Shown here: positions 18,798 through 50,194 of the stretch, one piece after another
How the letters are laid out: every line of letters begins with the position of its first letter
Position numbering within the stretch: position 1 is the stretch's first letter
Origin: a virus
Virus record (IMG/VR): IMGVR_UViG_3300042261_002158
Location: 1 to 64,000 of that record
Length of the DNA: 64,000 nucleotides
Direction: 5' to 3' (one strand)
Translations under genes and position numbers: made by a program
The notes under the pieces: generated by a model
What the model was told of the DNA's origin: nothing
Seen by the model: only the letters and a program-made list of their open reading frames with translations
Databases searched by the model: none

Positions 18798-19724
18798 TTA
18801 ATTCAACATCCAATTTGAATAGAATTCAGTATCTTCTTGATTGATCATCTTTCTCAATCGCTTGCTGATACTGATAGGCAAGTAACGGTAGACAATATCC
18901 AGGTATTCGGATGCAATGTTCTTGTCTCCGGTATCGATAGCCTTTCTTAACTGTTCAAAATCATAATTTAAACATTGCCATCCATCAGCCAAACTGTCTC
19001 CTTCATAAGCTTTGTCTTCGTCAAAGCTCCAAAACTCCCAAGCCTTTCCAGATTGTACAAATTCAATAACAAAACCACAGATATCGTAAATCAATTCTGT
19101 ACATTGTGGACTTTTGAGCCAAAAATTGCCTAGTGATCGATATTCAATCCCATAATCTTTCGCTCGATATCTGCCAGCTTGTCCGTATAATTTCCTCCTA
19201 ATACTGGAAGTTTCATCCTTGTCCAGCCATAATGAGGGAATTCCTAAAAATAAATCCAGCATGTAAATCGACAAAATTGGCTCTGCATCATCTGACGACA
19301 ACATGCTATTTCCCAAATGAATATGCCCTCCACAAGATCGCAAATTTCCATCAGAAATCAGTGAAACTGGAGGATCTTTCATTTTCAATTCATAAGCACA
19401 TGAATCTGGAGAACAGCCGACAACTCGTGCCTCTGGATGCTTCAATTGGTCATCAGGATAAATTTGAGAAGCTTGAATGTGCAACTTCAAAGGAGAGACA
19501 ATTTCAGCATATATTTTAAGACATTGCTGAAAATTCTTGATTAATTGAGACTTGTTCTTTACTGGCTTTACAGCACATTCAGCCATTACATTATCGTAAT
19601 AAAACTGATGACCTTCTATGGTGGTTCGGTTGTCACTATCGCCAGACAGCACTCCAATTGCAGAATAGTAATCTCCATCTTTAACCAACATAAATTCTGG
19701 ATCACTTCCAAAACTAAATTTCAT
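18798..19724 (-). CDS. Glutamine-synthetase-like amidoligase (COOH-NH2 ligase type 2)
   Basis: A 308-aa protein with AAGGAG upstream. It starts with GSDPEFMLVKDG, the signature of phage-type COOH-NH2 ligases. SCGGHIHLGN is the second conserved metal/ATP-binding motif and GIEYRSLGNFWL the third. These enzymes are predicted to form amide bonds between a carboxylate and an amine using ATP. The substrate in phages is not established. It lies directly downstream of an unknown gene (12 nt apart), probably one operon. Confidence 0.8.
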   Translation of the reverse strand: MKFSFGSDPEFMLVKDGDYYSAIGVLSGDSDNRTTIEGHQFYYDNVMAECAVKPVKNKSQLIKNFQQCLKIYAEIVSPLKLHIQASQIYPDDQLKHPEARVVGCSPDSCAYELKMKDPPVSLISDGNLRSCGGHIHLGNSMLSSDDAEPILSIYMLDLFLGIPSLWLDKDETSSIRRKLYGQAGRYRAKDYGIEYRSLGNFWLKSPQCTELIYDICGFVIEFVQSGKAWEFWSFDEDKAYEGDSLADGWQCLNYDFEQLRKAIDTGDKNIASEYLDIVYRYLPISISKRLRKMINQEDTEFYSNWMLN

Positions 19725-36686: not shown

Positions 36687-37826
36687 CTACCAGCCTTTCT
36701 TAATTACATCTACAATATATTCTCTATCTTCCTTTGTCAACCACCAACCTACTGGAATTGAGATATGAAATTGCTCCAAATAATCCATTCCTGGTAAAAA
36801 TGACTTATATTGACTTACACAACTATGTTTATCACAACGAGCATGTACTGGATTTACATCAATCCCATTCTCTTTCATTTTTCTAGTAAATCCATCTCGA
36901 TCCTGCACCTTTATAGTGTAAAGCCAATACGATGATTCAAAACCTTTAAGTTGTTCTAATAAAGTGACGCCTGAAACAGATTTCAATTGTTCATTATAAA
37001 ATTCAGCATTACTTTTATGAATTGCTACAGTGTCTTTCATATGTCCAAAATTTTCAATACCAATAGTAGCAGCAATATCATTCATTTGATACTTGAAACC
37101 CGATTCAACTATGTCCTGCACACAACGGAATGATGCTCCTTTATCACGATCTAAACCAAACCAGCGTAACAATTTAGCTCGTTCATAAGTTTCACGATCA
37201 GGAAGAATGATGAATCCTCCATCAGCGGTATTGAGAAATTTTATAGCTTGAAGACTAAAGCAAGCAAAATTTCCCCAAGTTCCAATCAATTTATTGTCAA
37301 TTTTGGTATTCCAACAATGAGCACAATCCTCAATAATATATAATTCTCTGCCATATTGTGAATAGTACATTTCCTTTAATAAATTGATTCTATACAAATC
37401 AACAGGAGTTCCACCCCAATGTACAAAAGAAATAGCTCGTGTATTTTTTGTCAATTTCCTTTCTGTATCTAATAAATCAATATTACAGGTATTAGGATCA
37501 GTATCTACCCAACGAACCTTGCAGCCATGTGCCATAATAGCAGAAACAGTGGCAAAACAGGTCAAGGGAGAGACAAGAATTTCATCGTTACAAGACCAAC
37601 CTTCTGGAGGTTTAATCAGGTAATTGGCTAATTGTAGAGCACTGGTACAGGAATTCATAGTGAGAAGGTAATCTGTACCAAAATAATCTTTCAATAATGT
37701 TTCAAATTCTTCAACTTTTGGACCTTGACCTACGTATCCAGAGTTAAGAACAGGCTCTAAGGCTTGAGAAACTGTGTCTGCCATAAATACTTTAAACAGA
37801 GGTATATTCTTTTTTGATGTTTGCAT
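36687..37826 (-). CDS. DegT/DnrJ/EryC1-family sugar aminotransferase
   Basis: A 379-aa protein with AAGGA upstream. NSCTSALQLANYL binds the PLP phosphate, IIEDCAH (165-170) carries the Asp that pairs with the ring, and SLQAIKFLNTADGG has Lys196 for the Schiff base. VHWGGTPVD is typical. It makes amino sugars from keto-sugar nucleotides using glutamate. Together with the next gene (GNAT) it should yield an N-acylated amino sugar. Confidence 0.9.
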   Translation of the reverse strand: MQTSKKNIPLFKVFMADTVSQALEPVLNSGYVGQGPKVEEFETLLKDYFGTDYLLTMNSCTSALQLANYLIKPPEGWSCNDEILVSPLTCFATVSAIMAHGCKVRWVDTDPNTCNIDLLDTERKLTKNTRAISFVHWGGTPVDLYRINLLKEMYYSQYGRELYIIEDCAHCWNTKIDNKLIGTWGNFACFSLQAIKFLNTADGGFIILPDRETYERAKLLRWFGLDRDKGASFRCVQDIVESGFKYQMNDIAATIGIENFGHMKDTVAIHKSNAEFYNEQLKSVSGVTLLEQLKGFESSYWLYTIKVQDRDGFTRKMKENGIDVNPVHARCDKHSCVSQYKSFLPGMDYLEQFHISIPVGWWLTKEDREYIVDVIKKGW

Positions 37827-39389: not shown

Positions 39390-40172
39390 GTGCAATTTAG
39401 AAATTATTTTGAAATGGTAGATATTTTTGGATTTGATGCCAAAAGAGATACAGAAAGGGCTGATGACAATATGCTCAGCAAGCCTATCAATACATTTAAT
39501 TTAGAGCTAATGATGGATTTGCTGTCTAGAAAAACAGTAGGATTGCAGGAAGCTTATGTGCCATTTGTTAATGAAATTCGCTGGGGTTATCAGCCAGGAG
39601 CTATTAAATTAGAAGTTGACACTGGATATACGTTTTACATCAAAAGATTAGGAATTGACAAACAAGGCAATCCAAGATGGGCTACCAAAAAAATGTTTCA
39701 GCTAAATCGTCAAGGATATGGTGGTCTTGAAGATTCAGTAACCCAGGAAATTTACGATCATATTGTCAGAACATATGATAGCAATTTGGATGCACCAAAA
39801 GAGAACTTTACGAATGAAGATTTGGAAAATCTAGTAATTCATTGTTACAACAAAGCAAAACGGGTCGCCAAAGAAGTCTTTATTCCTATTGGTGTTAAAA
39901 AACTTGGAGAATACAACTACGTCATCATGTTTGAGGTAAAAGGGCATGGTGTTGAAAGCCCAGGACAAAGTCGAGTTGAACAAAATCAGACCATGTTCAG
40001 CTATGACAAAGAACAGGGAACAATCAGAATGTTTAATTATAACATCGAAAGTCCCGTAGGAGGTCCGCACTCTTGGAGCCTAATGGAGAATGATTTAGAT
40101 ATTTATTTCTTCCCCACACAAGATCGTGATGAAATTTCTGAGTGCTTGGCGATTCATTACAAGTATTATTGA
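39390..40172 (+). CDS. Tagged phage protein, 260 aa
   Basis: The GTG at 39390 with AGGTGA 5 nt upstream gives MQFRNYFEMVDIFGF, in line with the tag; the GTG at 39381 is rejected. The body is alpha/beta with GYTFYIKRLGIDKQGNPRW and ends FFPTQDRDEISECLAIHYKYY. No enzyme motif. Divergent from the tagged gene at 39349 with 40 bp between starts, so both are probably controlled together. Confidence 0.6.
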   Translation: MQFRNYFEMVDIFGFDAKRDTERADDNMLSKPINTFNLELMMDLLSRKTVGLQEAYVPFVNEIRWGYQPGAIKLEVDTGYTFYIKRLGIDKQGNPRWATKKMFQLNRQGYGGLEDSVTQEIYDHIVRTYDSNLDAPKENFTNEDLENLVIHCYNKAKRVAKEVFIPIGVKKLGEYNYVIMFEVKGHGVESPGQSRVEQNQTMFSYDKEQGTIRMFNYNIESPVGGPHSWSLMENDLDIYFFPTQDRDEISECLAIHYKYY

Positions 40173-40717
40173 CAAAAAAACTTCAAAGCTGATTCTGTTA
40201 CTGGCATTCCTGCAAATTCTGCAATTTGTTTCACAGCTTTTTCTCTGTTTGCCATAATATCATTAAACTCTAAGTGTAATATTCTTCCAGGGTATTCTGA
40301 AAGATGTATTTTGTTCAAGTCACAATAATAACGAATCAAATATTTATATTCTGTACGCCCAATGGCTTTTTCTAAACTTCTACAAATATCTTCTTCAGGT
40401 CTGGTGATAGAAATCACAGAATTTTCACAAGACAAATTGCTGACAAGTGTAGAAAAGTACATGCAAAGTCTTGGGTCTTTCACTCCCCAAATAGGCAATT
40501 TCTCCCGTTTCCTGATCAGATAGAGATAGCAATCAAAATCAAAATCCGTTTCTTTATGCAATTCTTTAAAATCTAAATCCTCAAAATACCCTTTGGGATT
40601 ATTCTGATTGGGGATGTCAAATCTCTTCCCCATCATTACCCCTAAATGATGAAGAATGCCAGCAACGGCACTACTGCCGGTACGGTAGCATCCCAAAACT
40701 ATAATGCATTTGCTCAT
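40166..40717 (-). CDS. Sulfotransferase-like protein
   Basis: A 183-aa paralogue of the protein at 22886: IIVLGCYRTGSSAVAGILHH (PAPS loop), NPKGYFEDLDF, IWGVKDPRLCMYF, VISITRPEEDICRSL. Shorter than most sulfotransferases. Likely adds sulfate to a glycan made by the neighbouring cassette. Convergent with the tagged gene (7-nt overlap). Confidence 0.72.
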   Translation of the reverse strand: MSKCIIVLGCYRTGSSAVAGILHHLGVMMGKRFDIPNQNNPKGYFEDLDFKELHKETDFDFDCYLYLIRKREKLPIWGVKDPRLCMYFSTLVSNLSCENSVISITRPEEDICRSLEKAIGRTEYKYLIRYYCDLNKIHLSEYPGRILHLEFNDIMANREKAVKQIAEFAGMPVTESALKFFCQ

Positions 40718-40741: not shown

Positions 40742-40774
40742 AAAAAAAAAGGGGCCGGTCACTGACCGGCCCCC
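40742..40774 (-). terminator. Strong rho-independent terminator of the vault-like gene
   Basis: On the minus strand GGGGGCCGGTC / GACCGGCCCC with a 3-nt loop, then nine T. Confidence 0.9.
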
Positions 40775-40798: not shown

Positions 40799-43450
40799 CT
40801 AATTCTTTCCAGCCATACGATTGCCACTTCCATTTCCAGCCTGAATCGTTTCTGCTTTCTCAAAGAATTTCTTCAGAGTTGGAGCAAAACTCAACAGATT
40901 GGAAATGCTACTTCCAAGACTGTCACCTGACAAATATCGCTCAATCGTGCAAGCTTCAGCAAACTTGGTAGCCATTTCGTCTCGACCCAGACTAACCAGA
41001 ACTTCATACAGCCCATCTTTCGCTGCTTGGAATCGCTTCACAGCAGCTTCGGTCTGACTGTTCAACAAAGCAATCGCCTCTTCTTGCTTAACCTTTTCAA
41101 AGTTAAGGAATTGCTCTGTCTTAGTCTTTGTCCGTTGCAGATCGGCTTCAAACGAGATGTTTTGGAGCAATTCATTTGCTTTCAATTGCTCTGCTTGTTT
41201 ATCGATTTTCGATAGTTCAGCCTCAATCTGAGCCAATGACAAAGTCAACTGATCTTCCAGCAATTGCTTCTGGATATCAATTCGCAATTTATTGGTTTCA
41301 TAAACTGCGGTTTCTTTGGCCTGAGAAATTTTCTCCTGCTCAATCGTAGTCTCCAAAGATTTTCGACTTCGATCCAAGGAGATGTTGGATTTTACGACTT
41401 CATGCTGTGCTTCATCCAATAGCTTGGAAATGGCAGCATCACCAATCGTAATGAGAGATCCCTGATCATATGGCAGAATCTCTACCTCAAACACTCTCAT
41501 TCCATTGTCGAATTTGCGACCAGGGCGAGGACTGCCATCTTCTGGTTTTGGACCCAACACCACATCCCGAATCAAACTAACAGAATTAGCTTTGATTTCA
41601 GCAATGGTGTGCTGTTTGGCCATTCCGGCAATCACCGAACGGATATGATCGCAAAGATACTTGACATAGTTGTCTACTGAGAACCACTTCAGTTTATCTT
41701 CAGGAGTTTCGGCTTCAAAATTAACTCGCATCGAGATTTTGACAAAGCCACGGACATGATCTTTTGACTCAAATCCGATAATATCTCCCACCTGATTGTT
41801 GTGGACACAAAGATAACTTGTCCTCATCAACTTATCAGAATTCTTTGGCTTGCCTGTGGAAAGATTCATCTTTCCAAGCTTTTCATCATATTCCAACAGG
41901 AACATGAAATTGCCAGTTTCATTATGCTTTGGACCTTCCACAACACGCCGAGAACCTTCAGATCCTACCACCAACACAGCGTATCCAGGCCAAACCTCGA
42001 TTTTTGGCACACCGCTGTATTTAACATTCAAAGTTAATTGGCGAGGCTCTGTGTAGGTGCCACTACGACTGAGAGATTGAGAAGAACCTCCTGCTTTTCC
42101 AGATTTTTCTGGCACAAAATCATCAGATAGAGCGGCATCATAATTAGCGGCATAACTTGCCAACATCATATTTTGAGGCGTCACTTTGCCTCTGAGGCTT
42201 TTACGAACATCTCCTTCAGAGATCAATCCAGAACGTCCAGAAGGACTTTCCTGCATTGTTCCTGCCAGATCAATATTGTACTGCAAGGCTTCCTGATTGC
42301 CTGGGTACATGCTTTCGCATTCATCAGGCGTAAGAACACGACGTACCAGAATTTCGGTACGAGGATCGGGCAACAGCATTTTTGGACCACGAATCAACTG
42401 GATTTCTCCAGTATTTCGATTGATCAAATAACGTCCTTCGCCCTTAGGAATAGCAGTGGAGAAATGCTTTTTGTTGTGGCCATATTCAATAATAGCCAGT
42501 TCTTCCCTTGGATAATAGATTGCCAAGGTTTTGCCGGTGACAAATAATTCTTCGCCTTCCTGATATTTACGACTTGGCCTTTTACCGTCTGCTCCAACGG
42601 GCTTTTCCAAGTCCTCACCCACGAAATCAGCAGTCACTTTCAAATGAATACCATTAATGGTGTTCAATTCGATAGGCTTAAATTTCCTGTGACCTTCAGA
42701 ATCCTGATCAAATACCTGAGTGGGTCGAGGAAATACGACTTTTGGTCCTTTGGGATAATCTTTCTTGCCGGATTCATCAATTAAGCAGCAATACTCCATC
42801 TGTTCCAGAGTAACCGCTTCTCGTACATATTTGTCGGTTTCAGGATCTTTAAGAACTTCGACCCCAGTGCATGGGATAAAGAAACTTACGTCCGTTCCTT
42901 TAATGATAATACGAGTACCAACTGAAAAACTTTCAGGTCGCAGAAGCCCTTTGACTTCCACGCTTACGTCTTCGGTCTGTGCCTTAACAACCGTACCGGT
43001 CTTCCAATTCTTTTCTGCTTCCTCAGCATTATAAATAATTGCAATGAGGTACTGATTGGATCGGAGGCGATGCCCTTCGATCACATTGGCGATTTGTCCA
43101 GGCCACAGAGCTTCGCTCCAAGGACCTGGGATAACGATTTTGGAACCTTTGTTTAGGTCGATTCCATTTGAAGAGGGGCTTTCGGGAAAGCTTCTGCCAC
43201 CTTTGTCCTTAGAGGGATTTTCAATTACAACGTAATCGCCTTCTCCCGCTCTCGGAAATTGCTGAACAGCATCTTCGATAGAACATTCCCGAAATGTTCT
43301 GTCTTTGGCGTTATATTTGACTGGTTTATCTTGACCAGTCTGTGTGACCACTGTGGGTCCACGACGAACGCTAATTACGCCACCTGAGCCAATATTCTGC
43401 AAGTACAGATAGGCATCTGGGGCAATTGCGAAATCACGATTCTCGGCCAT
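40799..43450 (-). CDS. Major vault protein-like protein, 883 aa
   Basis: The ATG at 43450 (AAGGAG upstream) gives 883 aa, near the 860-895 aa of eukaryotic MVP. Residues 1-470 hold repeated beta modules with MVP-like phrases (YLINRNTGEIQLIRGPKMLL at 341-360; VEGPK at 504; KGPKVVFPRP at 234). Residues about 545-675 match the MVP shoulder (VGDIIGFESKDHVRGFVKIS; KWFSVDNYVKYLCDHIRSVI; FEVEIL). Residues 676-815 form a long Glu/Gln/Lys coiled coil like the cap helix, and a short hydrophobic C-terminus follows. MVP alone self-assembles into vault shells in eukaryotes. Base composition is clearly more GC-rich than the neighbours. Monocistronic with a strong terminator. Confidence 0.8.
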   Translation of the reverse strand: MAENRDFAIAPDAYLYLQNIGSGGVISVRRGPTVVTQTGQDKPVKYNAKDRTFRECSIEDAVQQFPRAGEGDYVVIENPSKDKGGRSFPESPSSNGIDLNKGSKIVIPGPWSEALWPGQIANVIEGHRLRSNQYLIAIIYNAEEAEKNWKTGTVVKAQTEDVSVEVKGLLRPESFSVGTRIIIKGTDVSFFIPCTGVEVLKDPETDKYVREAVTLEQMEYCCLIDESGKKDYPKGPKVVFPRPTQVFDQDSEGHRKFKPIELNTINGIHLKVTADFVGEDLEKPVGADGKRPSRKYQEGEELFVTGKTLAIYYPREELAIIEYGHNKKHFSTAIPKGEGRYLINRNTGEIQLIRGPKMLLPDPRTEILVRRVLTPDECESMYPGNQEALQYNIDLAGTMQESPSGRSGLISEGDVRKSLRGKVTPQNMMLASYAANYDAALSDDFVPEKSGKAGGSSQSLSRSGTYTEPRQLTLNVKYSGVPKIEVWPGYAVLVVGSEGSRRVVEGPKHNETGNFMFLLEYDEKLGKMNLSTGKPKNSDKLMRTSYLCVHNNQVGDIIGFESKDHVRGFVKISMRVNFEAETPEDKLKWFSVDNYVKYLCDHIRSVIAGMAKQHTIAEIKANSVSLIRDVVLGPKPEDGSPRPGRKFDNGMRVFEVEILPYDQGSLITIGDAAISKLLDEAQHEVVKSNISLDRSRKSLETTIEQEKISQAKETAVYETNKLRIDIQKQLLEDQLTLSLAQIEAELSKIDKQAEQLKANELLQNISFEADLQRTKTKTEQFLNFEKVKQEEAIALLNSQTEAAVKRFQAAKDGLYEVLVSLGRDEMATKFAEACTIERYLSGDSLGSSISNLLSFAPTLKKFFEKAETIQAGNGSGNRMAGKN

Positions 43451-43508
43451 TTTGGACTCCTTGCCTGAAAAAACTAGAAAACACTCTGAGCTAGTATACC
43501 ACAAAAAA

Positions 43509-44015
43509 TCAATCTAGGAAATTTTTAACCAAAATTTTGGCAAAAAAATTAGGATCTGCCTCTGAAATTACCTTTTCTTCTGTTGGTATAAGGCCGATCA
43601 AGATTTCGCCTACCGGAGCCAGAATATCTGTAAACAAACGCCAACGAGCATCCACAACTCCTTTAAAGTTCAAAACTTCACTCCCAATATGTTCTATAAA
43701 TAAATCTGTTTGTCGAGTGTTTGGTTTTCGAAAGATTCGCTGGCCAATTTTGTCTTCAAGATCAATTTCGCTAGGTTTGTAGGGAACAAAATCATAAGCA
43801 CAAGTTTCAAAAATTGCAGCAATTTCAGGCCCAGTAATGATTAATTCTGAACCATGAATCGACGTATTGTCTTTGAGTGAACTGCTGACTTCTGCTGTTT
43901 TGTCTAAAAGAGAATCATATTTTTCTCTAATAGTATCTCCCTCTGCTAGCATAAAATCCCATTCCACGATATTGGTTACAGATTTTCTGATTTTTTTAAT
44001 TGTTTCACGATCCAT
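43509..44015 (-). CDS. Capsid-derived paralogue, 168 aa
   Basis: AAGGA upstream. Contains SELIITGPEIAAIFETC and VVDARWRLFTDILAPVGEIL, then IGL, which I read as the 'nwiiaSPeia' and 'w.lY.D...p..eIL.G' segments of T4-type major capsid proteins. The full capsid fold is not present. One of three such proteins in this cluster (see 44546 and 49185). The start overlaps the 44005 gene by 11 nt. Confidence 0.55.
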   Translation of the reverse strand: MDRETIKKIRKSVTNIVEWDFMLAEGDTIREKYDSLLDKTAEVSSSLKDNTSIHGSELIITGPEIAAIFETCAYDFVPYKPSEIDLEDKIGQRIFRKPNTRQTDLFIEHIGSEVLNFKGVVDARWRLFTDILAPVGEILIGLIPTEEKVISEADPNFFAKILVKNFLD

Positions 44016-44545: not shown

Positions 44546-45211
44546 TTAAATCTTGTAATAGTTAGCATACGTTCTTTGTATCAATTCACGATAATAACTA
44601 CAATAAAATTTATCAGGCTCACTACAATCTTCTATAGATTGAATAATGGCTTGATCAAGTTGTTCATCAACAGGCGTCCCTAATGTATGCAAAATGTATT
44701 TTTCAACATCTTTCTTGAATTTTTCATAAGCACCTGAAACAACTCCCATTGTAATGCTGCCAAATAAAAGAGTGCGATCTTGATACAATCGCCAATCTGT
44801 CATGTTATAATATGGTGAACCAAAAGAGCCAAAATACCATTGGTTTTTAATAACTCCTAAATACTTGCAAACATTAGAAACCACACCATCATCATGTCCA
44901 TTAGAAGGCACAAAACCATCACATAATTGAAGTATTTCGGCAATTTCTGGACTAGCCATAATATAATTAGTTCCACAAAAGATATAGCTAGTTACAAAAA
45001 CGTCTCTTTCTCTAAATCTATTAGCTCCAAAAAACGCATTGATGCTTACTGCGGGAATAAATCTAGATTGACTACTTTGCAATTCTTCCATAACATGGAA
45101 TGTTTGCGTGGATCTTGGAGATTTTGGAGCAATACCAAGACTTGGCATGAACCCAAGCAAAGGCGATGCCACAATACCCTTCAACAAATCTCTTCGATTT
45201 AAATTACTCAT
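44546..45211 (-). CDS. Mosaic protein: Tat-like signal, capsid-type segment, neck-type segment
   Basis: A 221-aa protein with AAGGG upstream. Residues 4-24 (LNRRDLLKGIVASPLLGFMP) look like a twin-arginine signal. About 75-100 has TNYIMASPEIAEILQLC, and 142-156 DWRLYQDRTLLFGS, both capsid-type. The C-terminal 55 residues (KKDVEKYILHTLGTPVDEQL, then IIQSIEDCSEP) match the N-terminal helix pair of the neck protein at 5982. The same N-terminal signal is on the protein at 49185. Function unknown. Confidence 0.6.
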   Translation of the reverse strand: MSNLNRRDLLKGIVASPLLGFMPSLGIAPKSPRSTQTFHVMEELQSSQSRFIPAVSINAFFGANRFRERDVFVTSYIFCGTNYIMASPEIAEILQLCDGFVPSNGHDDGVVSNVCKYLGVIKNQWYFGSFGSPYYNMTDWRLYQDRTLLFGSITMGVVSGAYEKFKKDVEKYILHTLGTPVDEQLDQAIIQSIEDCSEPDKFYCSYYRELIQRTYANYYKI

Positions 45212-49184: not shown

Positions 49185-50000
49185 TCATCTTGTGATTACA
49201 ATTCTAGCATAATAATCTGGATCGACCATGCTTATGCCATAAGCCAACGAATTGTCTTGCTCCAAGTGTCTTGGGGCAAATACAAGTCCAGAATCCATAT
49301 AATTATCGCCTTTGTATCCGATCAGGATTTCATCAGCAGGAAAGTCATCGAATCTGTAAAGATCAATTTTATCCCCGCCATGTTGCATTCTGTACTCAAA
49401 TATAAATGGCATGCACAATATTATTTCTGATTTAGCTATTATCCAATAATTTTCAGGACGCAATGTTTTCCTGCGAATTACATTACATACTTCTATAATT
49501 TTATCCCAAAGACCACAAAGTTGTGTCCCTACAGTATTACCAGTATTACCATAGGTATCGTGTAAATTCCATTCATGAACTTCCTGCACACGTTGCCGAA
49601 GGTACTCAAAGACCTCACGTTCCATATTTTCTAATTGAATTTTTTGATTGATATTTGTCGTTTCTGAGCTAATAACGGTACAATCATCAGTGTAAGGAGG
49701 AAATTGTCTTGAATTTTTAACAGTTGCGTAATACGCAGTCGCAGTGTCACCAACAGCCGTTTGTACAGAAATCACATCAAACAAACATGTTTTACTGAAG
49801 GTATCCATCAAAATCTTCGTTTTATTTGGAAGATATTTGTCTTGATTTTCCTTCAAAGACGCAAGCATCATCTCTTTTATAGTCGGCTTTTTCTTTGGCG
49901 TTTCTTTAAAAATACGCTCTGGAATTACCACACTGGGCATAAACCCAAGCAACGGAGCCGACAAACATCCCTTCAACAGATCTCTGCGATTTAAACCCAT
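49185..50000 (-). CDS. Capsid-protein paralogue with Tat-like N-terminus
   Basis: A 271-aa protein; ATG 50000 has AAGGA upstream. Residues 3-23 (LNRRDLLKGCLSAPLLGFMP) match the signal on the 44546 protein. The rest follows the order of T4-type major capsid proteins: KIQLENMEREVFEYLRQRVQ, KIIEVCNVIRRKTL, NYWIIAKSEI, IDLYRFDDFPADEILIGYKG, DNYMDSGLVFAPRHL. About half the length of a full capsid protein; the N-arm and insert domain are missing. The presence of an export-type signal on a capsid fold is odd. Confidence 0.65.
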   Translation of the reverse strand: MGLNRRDLLKGCLSAPLLGFMPSVVIPERIFKETPKKKPTIKEMMLASLKENQDKYLPNKTKILMDTFSKTCLFDVISVQTAVGDTATAYYATVKNSRQFPPYTDDCTVISSETTNINQKIQLENMEREVFEYLRQRVQEVHEWNLHDTYGNTGNTVGTQLCGLWDKIIEVCNVIRRKTLRPENYWIIAKSEIILCMPFIFEYRMQHGGDKIDLYRFDDFPADEILIGYKGDNYMDSGLVFAPRHLEQDNSLAYGISMVDPDYYARIVITR

Positions 50001-50014
50001 TACCAAATCCTTTC

Positions 50015-50194
50015 TTACAACCCAAGTTCTGTCCAATCTCCGAAAACAAAATCGTATTCTTCTCTCATTTGTTCTGAATCGAACTCTTGCAACATATCAG
50101 AATAACGTTCGTATTCTTCTTCGGTAATTTCGCCGTCAGAACATTTTTTGAACATACGGCTCTCAAGCCTATTATACATCTGTTCTCGGTTCAT
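50015..50194 (-). CDS. Small acidic protein, 59 aa
   Basis: ATG 50194 with AAGGTG upstream. Strongly acidic helix (CSDGEITEEEYERYSDMLQE). Overlaps the preceding gene. Unknown. Confidence 0.6.
   Translation of the reverse strand: MNREQMYNRLESRMFKKCSDGEITEEEYERYSDMLQEFDSEQMREEYDFVFGDWTELGL

What the first reader, a model, noticed from the sequence alone, without database searches (positions are those of the whole stretch)
40799..43450. A phage gene for a full-length major vault protein-like shell protein
Length (883 aa), an N-terminal run of beta modules with RGPK-type turns, a shoulder-like region at about 545-675, a 140-residue coiled coil and a short hydrophobic end follow the order and spacing of eukaryotic MVP. 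SPFH proteins share the shoulder fold, but not the long N-terminal modules. Its base composition is more GC-rich than its neighbours, it is transcribed alone and it has the strongest terminator type in the window. A vault-like nanocompartment in a phage-infected bacterium would be a new system, perhaps for sheltering, storing or exporting something during infection. I know of MVP in eukaryotes and some bacteria, but not in a phage.
Basis: partly seen in the sequence, partly recalled or inferred. Interest (0 to 1): 0.95.

Follow-up and report, generated by a model that had tools for sequence, protein, structure and literature searches.

The report
Vault-like shell protein in large phages
A large bacterial virus carries a gene for a full-length relative of the major vault protein, which builds the giant hollow 'vault' particles of our own cells, and at least 178 other virus contigs, many of them large phages, plus a patchy set of bacteria carry it too, although reviews still call vaults a eukaryote-only structure.

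Summary
The gene is on the MINUS strand (43450 to 40799; 883 aa). The window lies in a 114-kb IMG/VR phage record with T4-type replication genes. The protein has the full MVP layout: beta modules, shoulder, one ~150-residue helix, short C-terminal cap. A family profile hits MVP alone in the PDB (E=2e-39). A profile of the N-terminal half alone also gives only MVP as significant (3e-6). Foldseek with the AlphaFold2 model gives full-length MVP at 1e-30 and the MVP R1-R7 crystal fragment at 3e-12; the best SPFH cage is 4e-7. It is not a one-off: full-length relatives occur in at least 178 viral loci, in published huge phages (735 and 462 kb), and in at least 162 bacterial genome loci. It differs from eukaryotic MVP: about seven beta modules instead of nine, an 80-126-residue insert where MVP has its disordered 429-449 loop, and no DUF4062/TEP1-type partner or vault RNA found. 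Assembly and function are inferred. A vault-sized lumen is too small for the phage genome, so protein or RNP cargo is likelier. I found no published phage vault in the papers held.

The parts
40799..43450 (-). vault-family gene, 883 aa, ATG at 43450, stop at 40801-40799
42335..43450 (-). residues 1-372: about six MVP-type beta modules (count is my reading of sequence and AF2 strands)
   Evidence: Vault_3 in 47/48 members, Vault in 9/48
42011..42334 (-). residues 373-480: variable helical/disordered insert, 80-126 aa across the family, at the position of the disordered MVP loop 429-449
41831..42010 (-). residues 481-540: last beta module, equivalent to MVP R9
41474..41830 (-). residues 541-659: MVP shoulder domain
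40991..41437 (-). residues 672-820: single long cap helix; the aligned stretch is 151 aa in most of 85 members (MVP helix-cap 647-814)
40802..40990 (-). residues 821-883: short C-terminal cap helices and tail
43457..43462 (-). ribosome-binding site AAGGAG, 6 nt before ATG
43493..43501 (-). extended -10 promoter-like element TGG-TATACT in the 58-nt gap to the upstream gene (my reading; not picked up by the scan)
40750..40774 (-). strong intrinsic terminator (11 bp stem, 9 GC pairs, run of T) just downstream

Best explanation
The gene encodes a phage member of the vault (MVP) superfamily. Shown by sequence and predicted fold: stacked MVP beta modules, shoulder, long cap helix, C-terminal cap, no membrane anchor. 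Inferred: copies pack side by side (beta modules as the wall, shoulder ring, helices as a conical cap) into a half-barrel, and two halves join through the N-terminal R1 modules into a hollow closed particle. The wall would be shorter than in eukaryotes (about seven modules), and the insert at the R8-like loop is the natural place for a subgroup-specific cargo or partner contact. In the infected cell the particle most likely encloses or scaffolds protein or ribonucleoprotein cargo. It is unlikely to hold the phage genome: 114 kb of naked DNA already needs about 1.2e5 nm3, against about 3.5e4 nm3 in a full eukaryotic vault.
For: Family profile against PDB: only MVP, E=2.3e-39, aligning last module + shoulder + helix collinearly with MVP 457-802 and profile positions 215-348 with MVP 275-409. 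N-terminal half alone: MVP 2.8e-6, next hit 0.03. Foldseek: 12 MVP entries at 5.5e-25 to 1.4e-30 over 850+ columns, MVP R1-R7 at 3e-12, best SPFH 4e-7. Pfam: MVP_shoulder 48/48, Vault_3 47/48. Helix stretch 151 aa in most of 85 members, as expected if it packs in a ring. R1 is about as conserved as the other modules and has an acidic residue at position 41 in 81 of 85 members near MVP's waist residues D39/R42. No transmembrane-like stretch. Full-length in diverse phages and bacteria, so under long-term selection. Lumen volume of the eukaryotic vault from PMC13347060.
Against: No multimer prediction or microscopy was possible; pTM is 0.63 and TM-scores to MVP are about 0.3-0.5 (an elongated, flexible chain). 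Identity to MVP in the structural alignments is only about 15-17%. Seven modules and the big insert could change the assembly. No conserved neighbour and no conserved cargo gene. DUF4062 in 0/38 records, no vault RNA in the window.
Confidence: 0.65

Rival explanations
1. It works like an SPFH protein: an open half-dome that organises or caps a patch of host membrane, the beta modules only lengthening the wall.
For: The shoulder is an SPFH fold (PMC13347060, PMC13100048); 26 of 48 members show weak Band_7 similarity; genuine flotillin/SPFH genes sit near the vault gene in several phages (L008, L154, L159, L117); eukaryotic vaults also touch membranes (PMC13100048).
Against: P0001 itself has no Band_7 hit; no hydrophobic or transmembrane stretch upstream of the shoulder, which PMC13100048 gives as a shared SPFH feature; R1 is conserved; SPFH structures score far below MVP; about ten of 38 vault-carrying phage records have separate true SPFH genes.
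Confidence: 0.15
2. It is a virion part: a shell protein carried in or on the phage particle, for example injected with the DNA.
For: Genes upstream of it resemble fragments of the T4 Gp23 capsid protein (43509-44015 E=0.006, 49185-50036 E=1.7e-4, both below cut-off); in L002 it lies near a 2690-aa gene that could be a tape measure.
Against: No consistent link to structural genes across phage loci; relatives sit in bacterial chromosomes such as Nannocystis, where there is no virion to serve.
Confidence: 0.1
3. It is a vault-like particle whose main use is counter-defence: its many shoulder pockets bind NAD-derived nucleotides and soak up ADP-ribose or related signals.
For: Human vault shoulders bind NAD+, ADP and ADP-ribose (PMC13174449); many anti-phage systems act through NAD+ (general knowledge); the shoulder is conserved here.
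Against: Pocket residues could not be compared (the source paper is not held); bacteria carry the gene as well; no genetic link to defence or NAD genes was found.
Confidence: 0.06

Closest known systems
Eukaryotic major vault protein (MVP; PDB 4HL8, 7PKZ, 9MXV; Pfam PF11978, PF17795, PF01505)
   Same: Order of domains, shoulder, ~150-residue cap helix, MVP-type beta modules by profile and fold, no membrane anchor, similar length (861-893 vs 883)
   Different: About 15-17% identity; about seven modules instead of nine (my count); large insert at the MVP 429-449 loop; no known partner found; encoded by a phage
SPFH/Band 7 proteins (flotillin, stomatin, prohibitin, HflK/C)
   Same: Shoulder fold followed by a long helix
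   Different: [quoted passage not shown] structure match far weaker
Predicted vault protein of Borgs (PMC12660748)
   Same: Predicted vault-like subunit in a large extrachromosomal element, known only from computation
   Different: Elements of methane-oxidising archaea; sequence relation to this family not tested here
Phage nucleus shell (chimallin)
   Same: A large-phage protein shell inside the infected cell
   Different: Unrelated fold: none among the 50 listed PDB hits; that shell encloses the genome, a vault-sized one could not

Membership tests
Major vault protein (MVP) superfamily | MVP shoulder domain | tested here: met
   PF11978 71 bits vs cut-off 25; 48/48 members
Major vault protein (MVP) superfamily | Repeated MVP beta modules N-terminal to the shoulder (unique to the vault per PMC13100048) | tested here: met
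   N-terminal profile finds MVP only, 2.8e-6; fold match to MVP R1-R7 3e-12; Vault_3 in 47/48. For P0001 alone Vault_3 is 0.021, below cut-off
Major vault protein (MVP) superfamily | Nine modules (R1-R9) | tested here: inconclusive
   About seven by my reading of strands and collinear alignment; no coordinates were available to superpose
Major vault protein (MVP) superfamily | Long cap helix and C-terminal cap after the shoulder | tested here: met
   Helix 672-820, length nearly fixed, aligned to MVP to residue 802
Major vault protein (MVP) superfamily | Self-assembly into two 39-mer halves joined at the N-termini | not testable with these tools
   No multimer prediction; only R1 conservation and an acidic waist-loop residue
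Eukaryotic vault ribonucleoprotein | TEP1, PARP4 and vault RNA as partners | tested here: inconclusive
   DUF4062 0/38 records; TROVE in 6/37 vault-carrying phage records, G000 not included; no vault RNA in the window by Rfam; PARP4 not tested; records may be fragments
SPFH / Band 7 | Band_7 domain by Pfam | tested here: not met
   No Band_7 hit for P0001 at E<=1 or anywhere in G000 at E<=0.001; weak hits in 26/48 relatives
SPFH / Band 7 | Membrane-anchoring motif upstream of the domain | tested here: not met
   Highest 19-residue hydropathy 1.22 in P0001; 2 of 85 members over 1.6; lipidation not tested

The most novel reading that the evidence does not exclude
Large phages build their own vault-like closed compartments inside infected bacteria, and the vault plan (module wall, shoulder, helical cap) is an old prokaryote-and-phage invention of which the eukaryotic vault is one branch, not a eukaryotic novelty.
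Probability: 0.4. Interest if true: 0.93.

Novelty: new variant of a known kind. Interest (0 to 1): 0.82.

Why it matters
The function of vaults has been open since 1986, and recent papers call them exclusive to eukaryotes (PMC11855390) or absent from prokaryotes (PMC9778704). A family with the same full architecture in phages and in culturable bacteria (for example Nannocystis exedens and Thermoflexibacter ruber) would give genetically simpler systems in which to ask what a vault is for, would recast the origin of the eukaryotic particle, and could add a new kind of compartment to phage infection.

Tried and rejected
(1) Only SPFH: rejected. (2) Host fragment or mis-binned bacterial contig: rejected for the window, which has UvsW-type helicase, UvsX, DnaB-type helicase, phage ssDNA-binding protein, DNA polymerase, head maturation protease and head-tail adaptor matches. 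(3) Conserved operon partner: none. (4) TROVE as partner: found in 6/37 vault-carrying phage records, two within about 5 kb, but 0/17 other TROVE-carrying phage records hold MVP, so no systematic link is shown. (5) Pfam terminase (PF17289) and tail sheath (PF04984) as phage markers: too insensitive, they also miss the published huge phages. (6) Canonical MVP repeat model PF01505 in 14 bacterial genomes: nothing over cut-off. (7) A single-protein scan with the window's helicase found one weak relative only. (8) Plasmids: none.

Full report
CHECK OF THE OBSERVATION. The finding's coordinates hold one long frame, but on the minus strand: ATG at 43450, stop ending at 40799, 883 residues. An AAGGAG lies 6 nt before the ATG. 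GC is 0.42-0.445 over the gene and 0.32-0.37 around it. A strong terminator follows at 40774-40750. Two same-strand genes lie upstream, the nearer ending 58 nt before the start, so separate transcription is plausible, not shown; an extended -10 (TGG-TATACT, 43501-43493) lies in the gap (my reading; the scan did not list it).

CONTEXT. The window is part of G000, a 114,152-bp IMG/VR virus record. It carries UvsW-type helicase, DNA polymerase, a head-tail adaptor match, DnaB-type helicase, phage ssDNA-binding protein, UvsX and a head maturation protease, so it is a tailed phage with T4-type replication. It has one vault-type gene.

WHAT THE PROTEIN IS. Pfam gives MVP_shoulder at 1.1e-19 and a weak MVP repeat, Vault_3, at 0.021. 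Phmmer against all PDB chains finds MVP only (1e-12). PHROGs and NCBIfam have no model for it. A profile of 85 relatives (A2) finds only MVP chains in the PDB at E<=0.01, best 2.3e-39, collinear over the last module, shoulder and helix, with a second collinear block 215-348 on MVP 275-409. I therefore built a profile of the N-terminal 372 residues alone (A4): MVP at 2.8e-6, next hit 0.03. Of 48 members, all match MVP_shoulder, 47 Vault_3, 9 Vault, 26 weakly Band_7.

FOLD. AlphaFold2 with the 85-row alignment gives pLDDT 81.9, pTM 0.63. Foldseek against the PDB: twelve MVP entries first (1.4e-30 to 5.5e-25, 850 or more alignment columns), then the MVP R1-R7 crystal fragment (3e-12), then flotillin (4e-7) and other SPFH cages. 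TM-scores to whole MVP are 0.3-0.5, as expected for an elongated, flexing chain. Counting strands and following the collinear alignment I see about seven beta modules, against nine in MVP; this count is mine and was not superposed. Between the sixth and the last module lies an insert of 108 residues (80-126 in relatives), poorly predicted and poorly conserved (0.37 against 0.56-0.73 for the modules). It falls where MVP has a loop that is missing in the published structures, 429-449 (PMC13347060). The stretch aligned to the long helix is 151 residues in most members, a strict length that fits ring packing. No member looks like a membrane protein.

HOW WIDESPREAD. Full-length relatives: LR756500 (462 kb) and LR756501/LR756503 (735,411 bp), uncultured phage records; the 735-kb size matches the largest genome of the huge-phage paper PMC7162821, whose text does not mention vaults; at least 178 IMG/VR loci; at least 162 loci in GTDB genomes, among them Nannocystis, Enhygromyxa, Thermoflexibacter, Eremiobacterota and Riflebacteria; none on plasmids. 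Of 86 listed viral contigs 41 are at least 100 kb. In Myxococcota 11 of 141 sampled genomes have it: patchy. Some hits in metagenome bins may be phage contigs. A 155-row tree needs 8 phage/bacterium label changes, at least 6 forced by well-supported branches; a 33-row mixture-model tree needs 6, at least 3 forced. So the gene has probably moved between phages and bacteria several times, and phages hold most of its divergent diversity. The window's copy is on a long branch and its exact place is unsure.

PARTNERS. No conserved neighbour. DUF4062, the NADase domain of vault-bound TEP1 (PMC13174449), is absent from 38 records. TROVE, another domain of TEP1 (PMC9605863), occurs in 6 of 37 vault-carrying phage records, two close by: about 2 kb away in the L117 record and about 5 kb in the L134 record; but none of 17 further TROVE-carrying phage records holds a vault gene. 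A lead, not a link. True SPFH/flotillin genes occur in about ten of the records and lie near the vault gene in L008, L154, L159 and L117.

MECHANISM. Shown: homology, domain order, absence of a membrane anchor. Inferred: lateral assembly, pairing of halves through R1, hollow lumen, cargo. For pairing speak the conservation of R1 and an acid at position 41 in 81 of 85 members, close to the MVP waist salt-bridge residues D39/R42 (PMC13347060). A genome-storage role is unlikely: 114,152 bp x 0.34 nm x pi x 1 nm2 is about 1.2e5 nm3, while a eukaryotic vault encloses about 3.5e4 nm3. Protein or RNP cargo is the best guess; ribosome-size cargo is known in eukaryotic vaults (PMC13347060).

NOVELTY. 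Held literature calls vaults eukaryote-exclusive or absent from prokaryotes (abstracts of PMC11855390 and PMC9778704), mentions a predicted vault protein in Borgs (PMC12660748), and has no phage vault that I could find. The library misses subscription papers, and bacterial MVP-like entries exist in databases (my knowledge), so priority is not certain. I file it as a new variant of a known kind: a vault-superfamily protein by sequence and fold, distinct in module number, insert and carrier, with assembly untested.

Noticed in passing
window 43509-44015, 44546-45211, 49185-50036 (minus strand): Cluster of small genes just upstream of the vault gene; two have weak, below-cut-off similarity to T4 major capsid protein Gp23 (E=0.006 and 1.7e-4); 44546 and 49185 share a similar 'NRRDLLKG...PLLGFMPS' start. 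Possibly diverged capsid-protein paralogues.
   Followed up: partly
L117 6604-8325 and 12687-14483; L134 16885-18561: Vault gene with a TROVE/Ro60-like gene about 2 kb away and an SPFH gene directly downstream in one phage (L117); a TROVE gene about 5 kb from the vault gene in another (L134).
   Followed up: partly
L008 7708-9213, L154 4144-5682, L159 15334-16716: Flotillin-type SPFH genes within a few kb of the vault gene in related large phages: both cage types in one phage.
   Followed up: partly
L002 and L003 9980-12342: The nearest relative in the first scan (55% identity) lacks a block of roughly 75-90 residues in the N-terminal part and is split into two frames in two contigs: real loss or assembly error.
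   Followed up: no
BFVD A0A3G5A4K1 (Harvfovirus): An 802-aa giant-virus 'prohibitin domain' protein is the best viral fold match over nearly full length (E=9.5e-11); possibly another viral vault-like protein.
   Followed up: no
window 18798-19724 and L184 8690-9724: A COOH-NH2 ligase and an amidoligase-type enzyme in the same phage.
   Followed up: no
window 13566-40717: Many sugar genes: glycosyltransferases, a DegT/DnrJ aminotransferase (36687-37826) and a sulfotransferase next to the vault gene (40166-40717).
   Followed up: no
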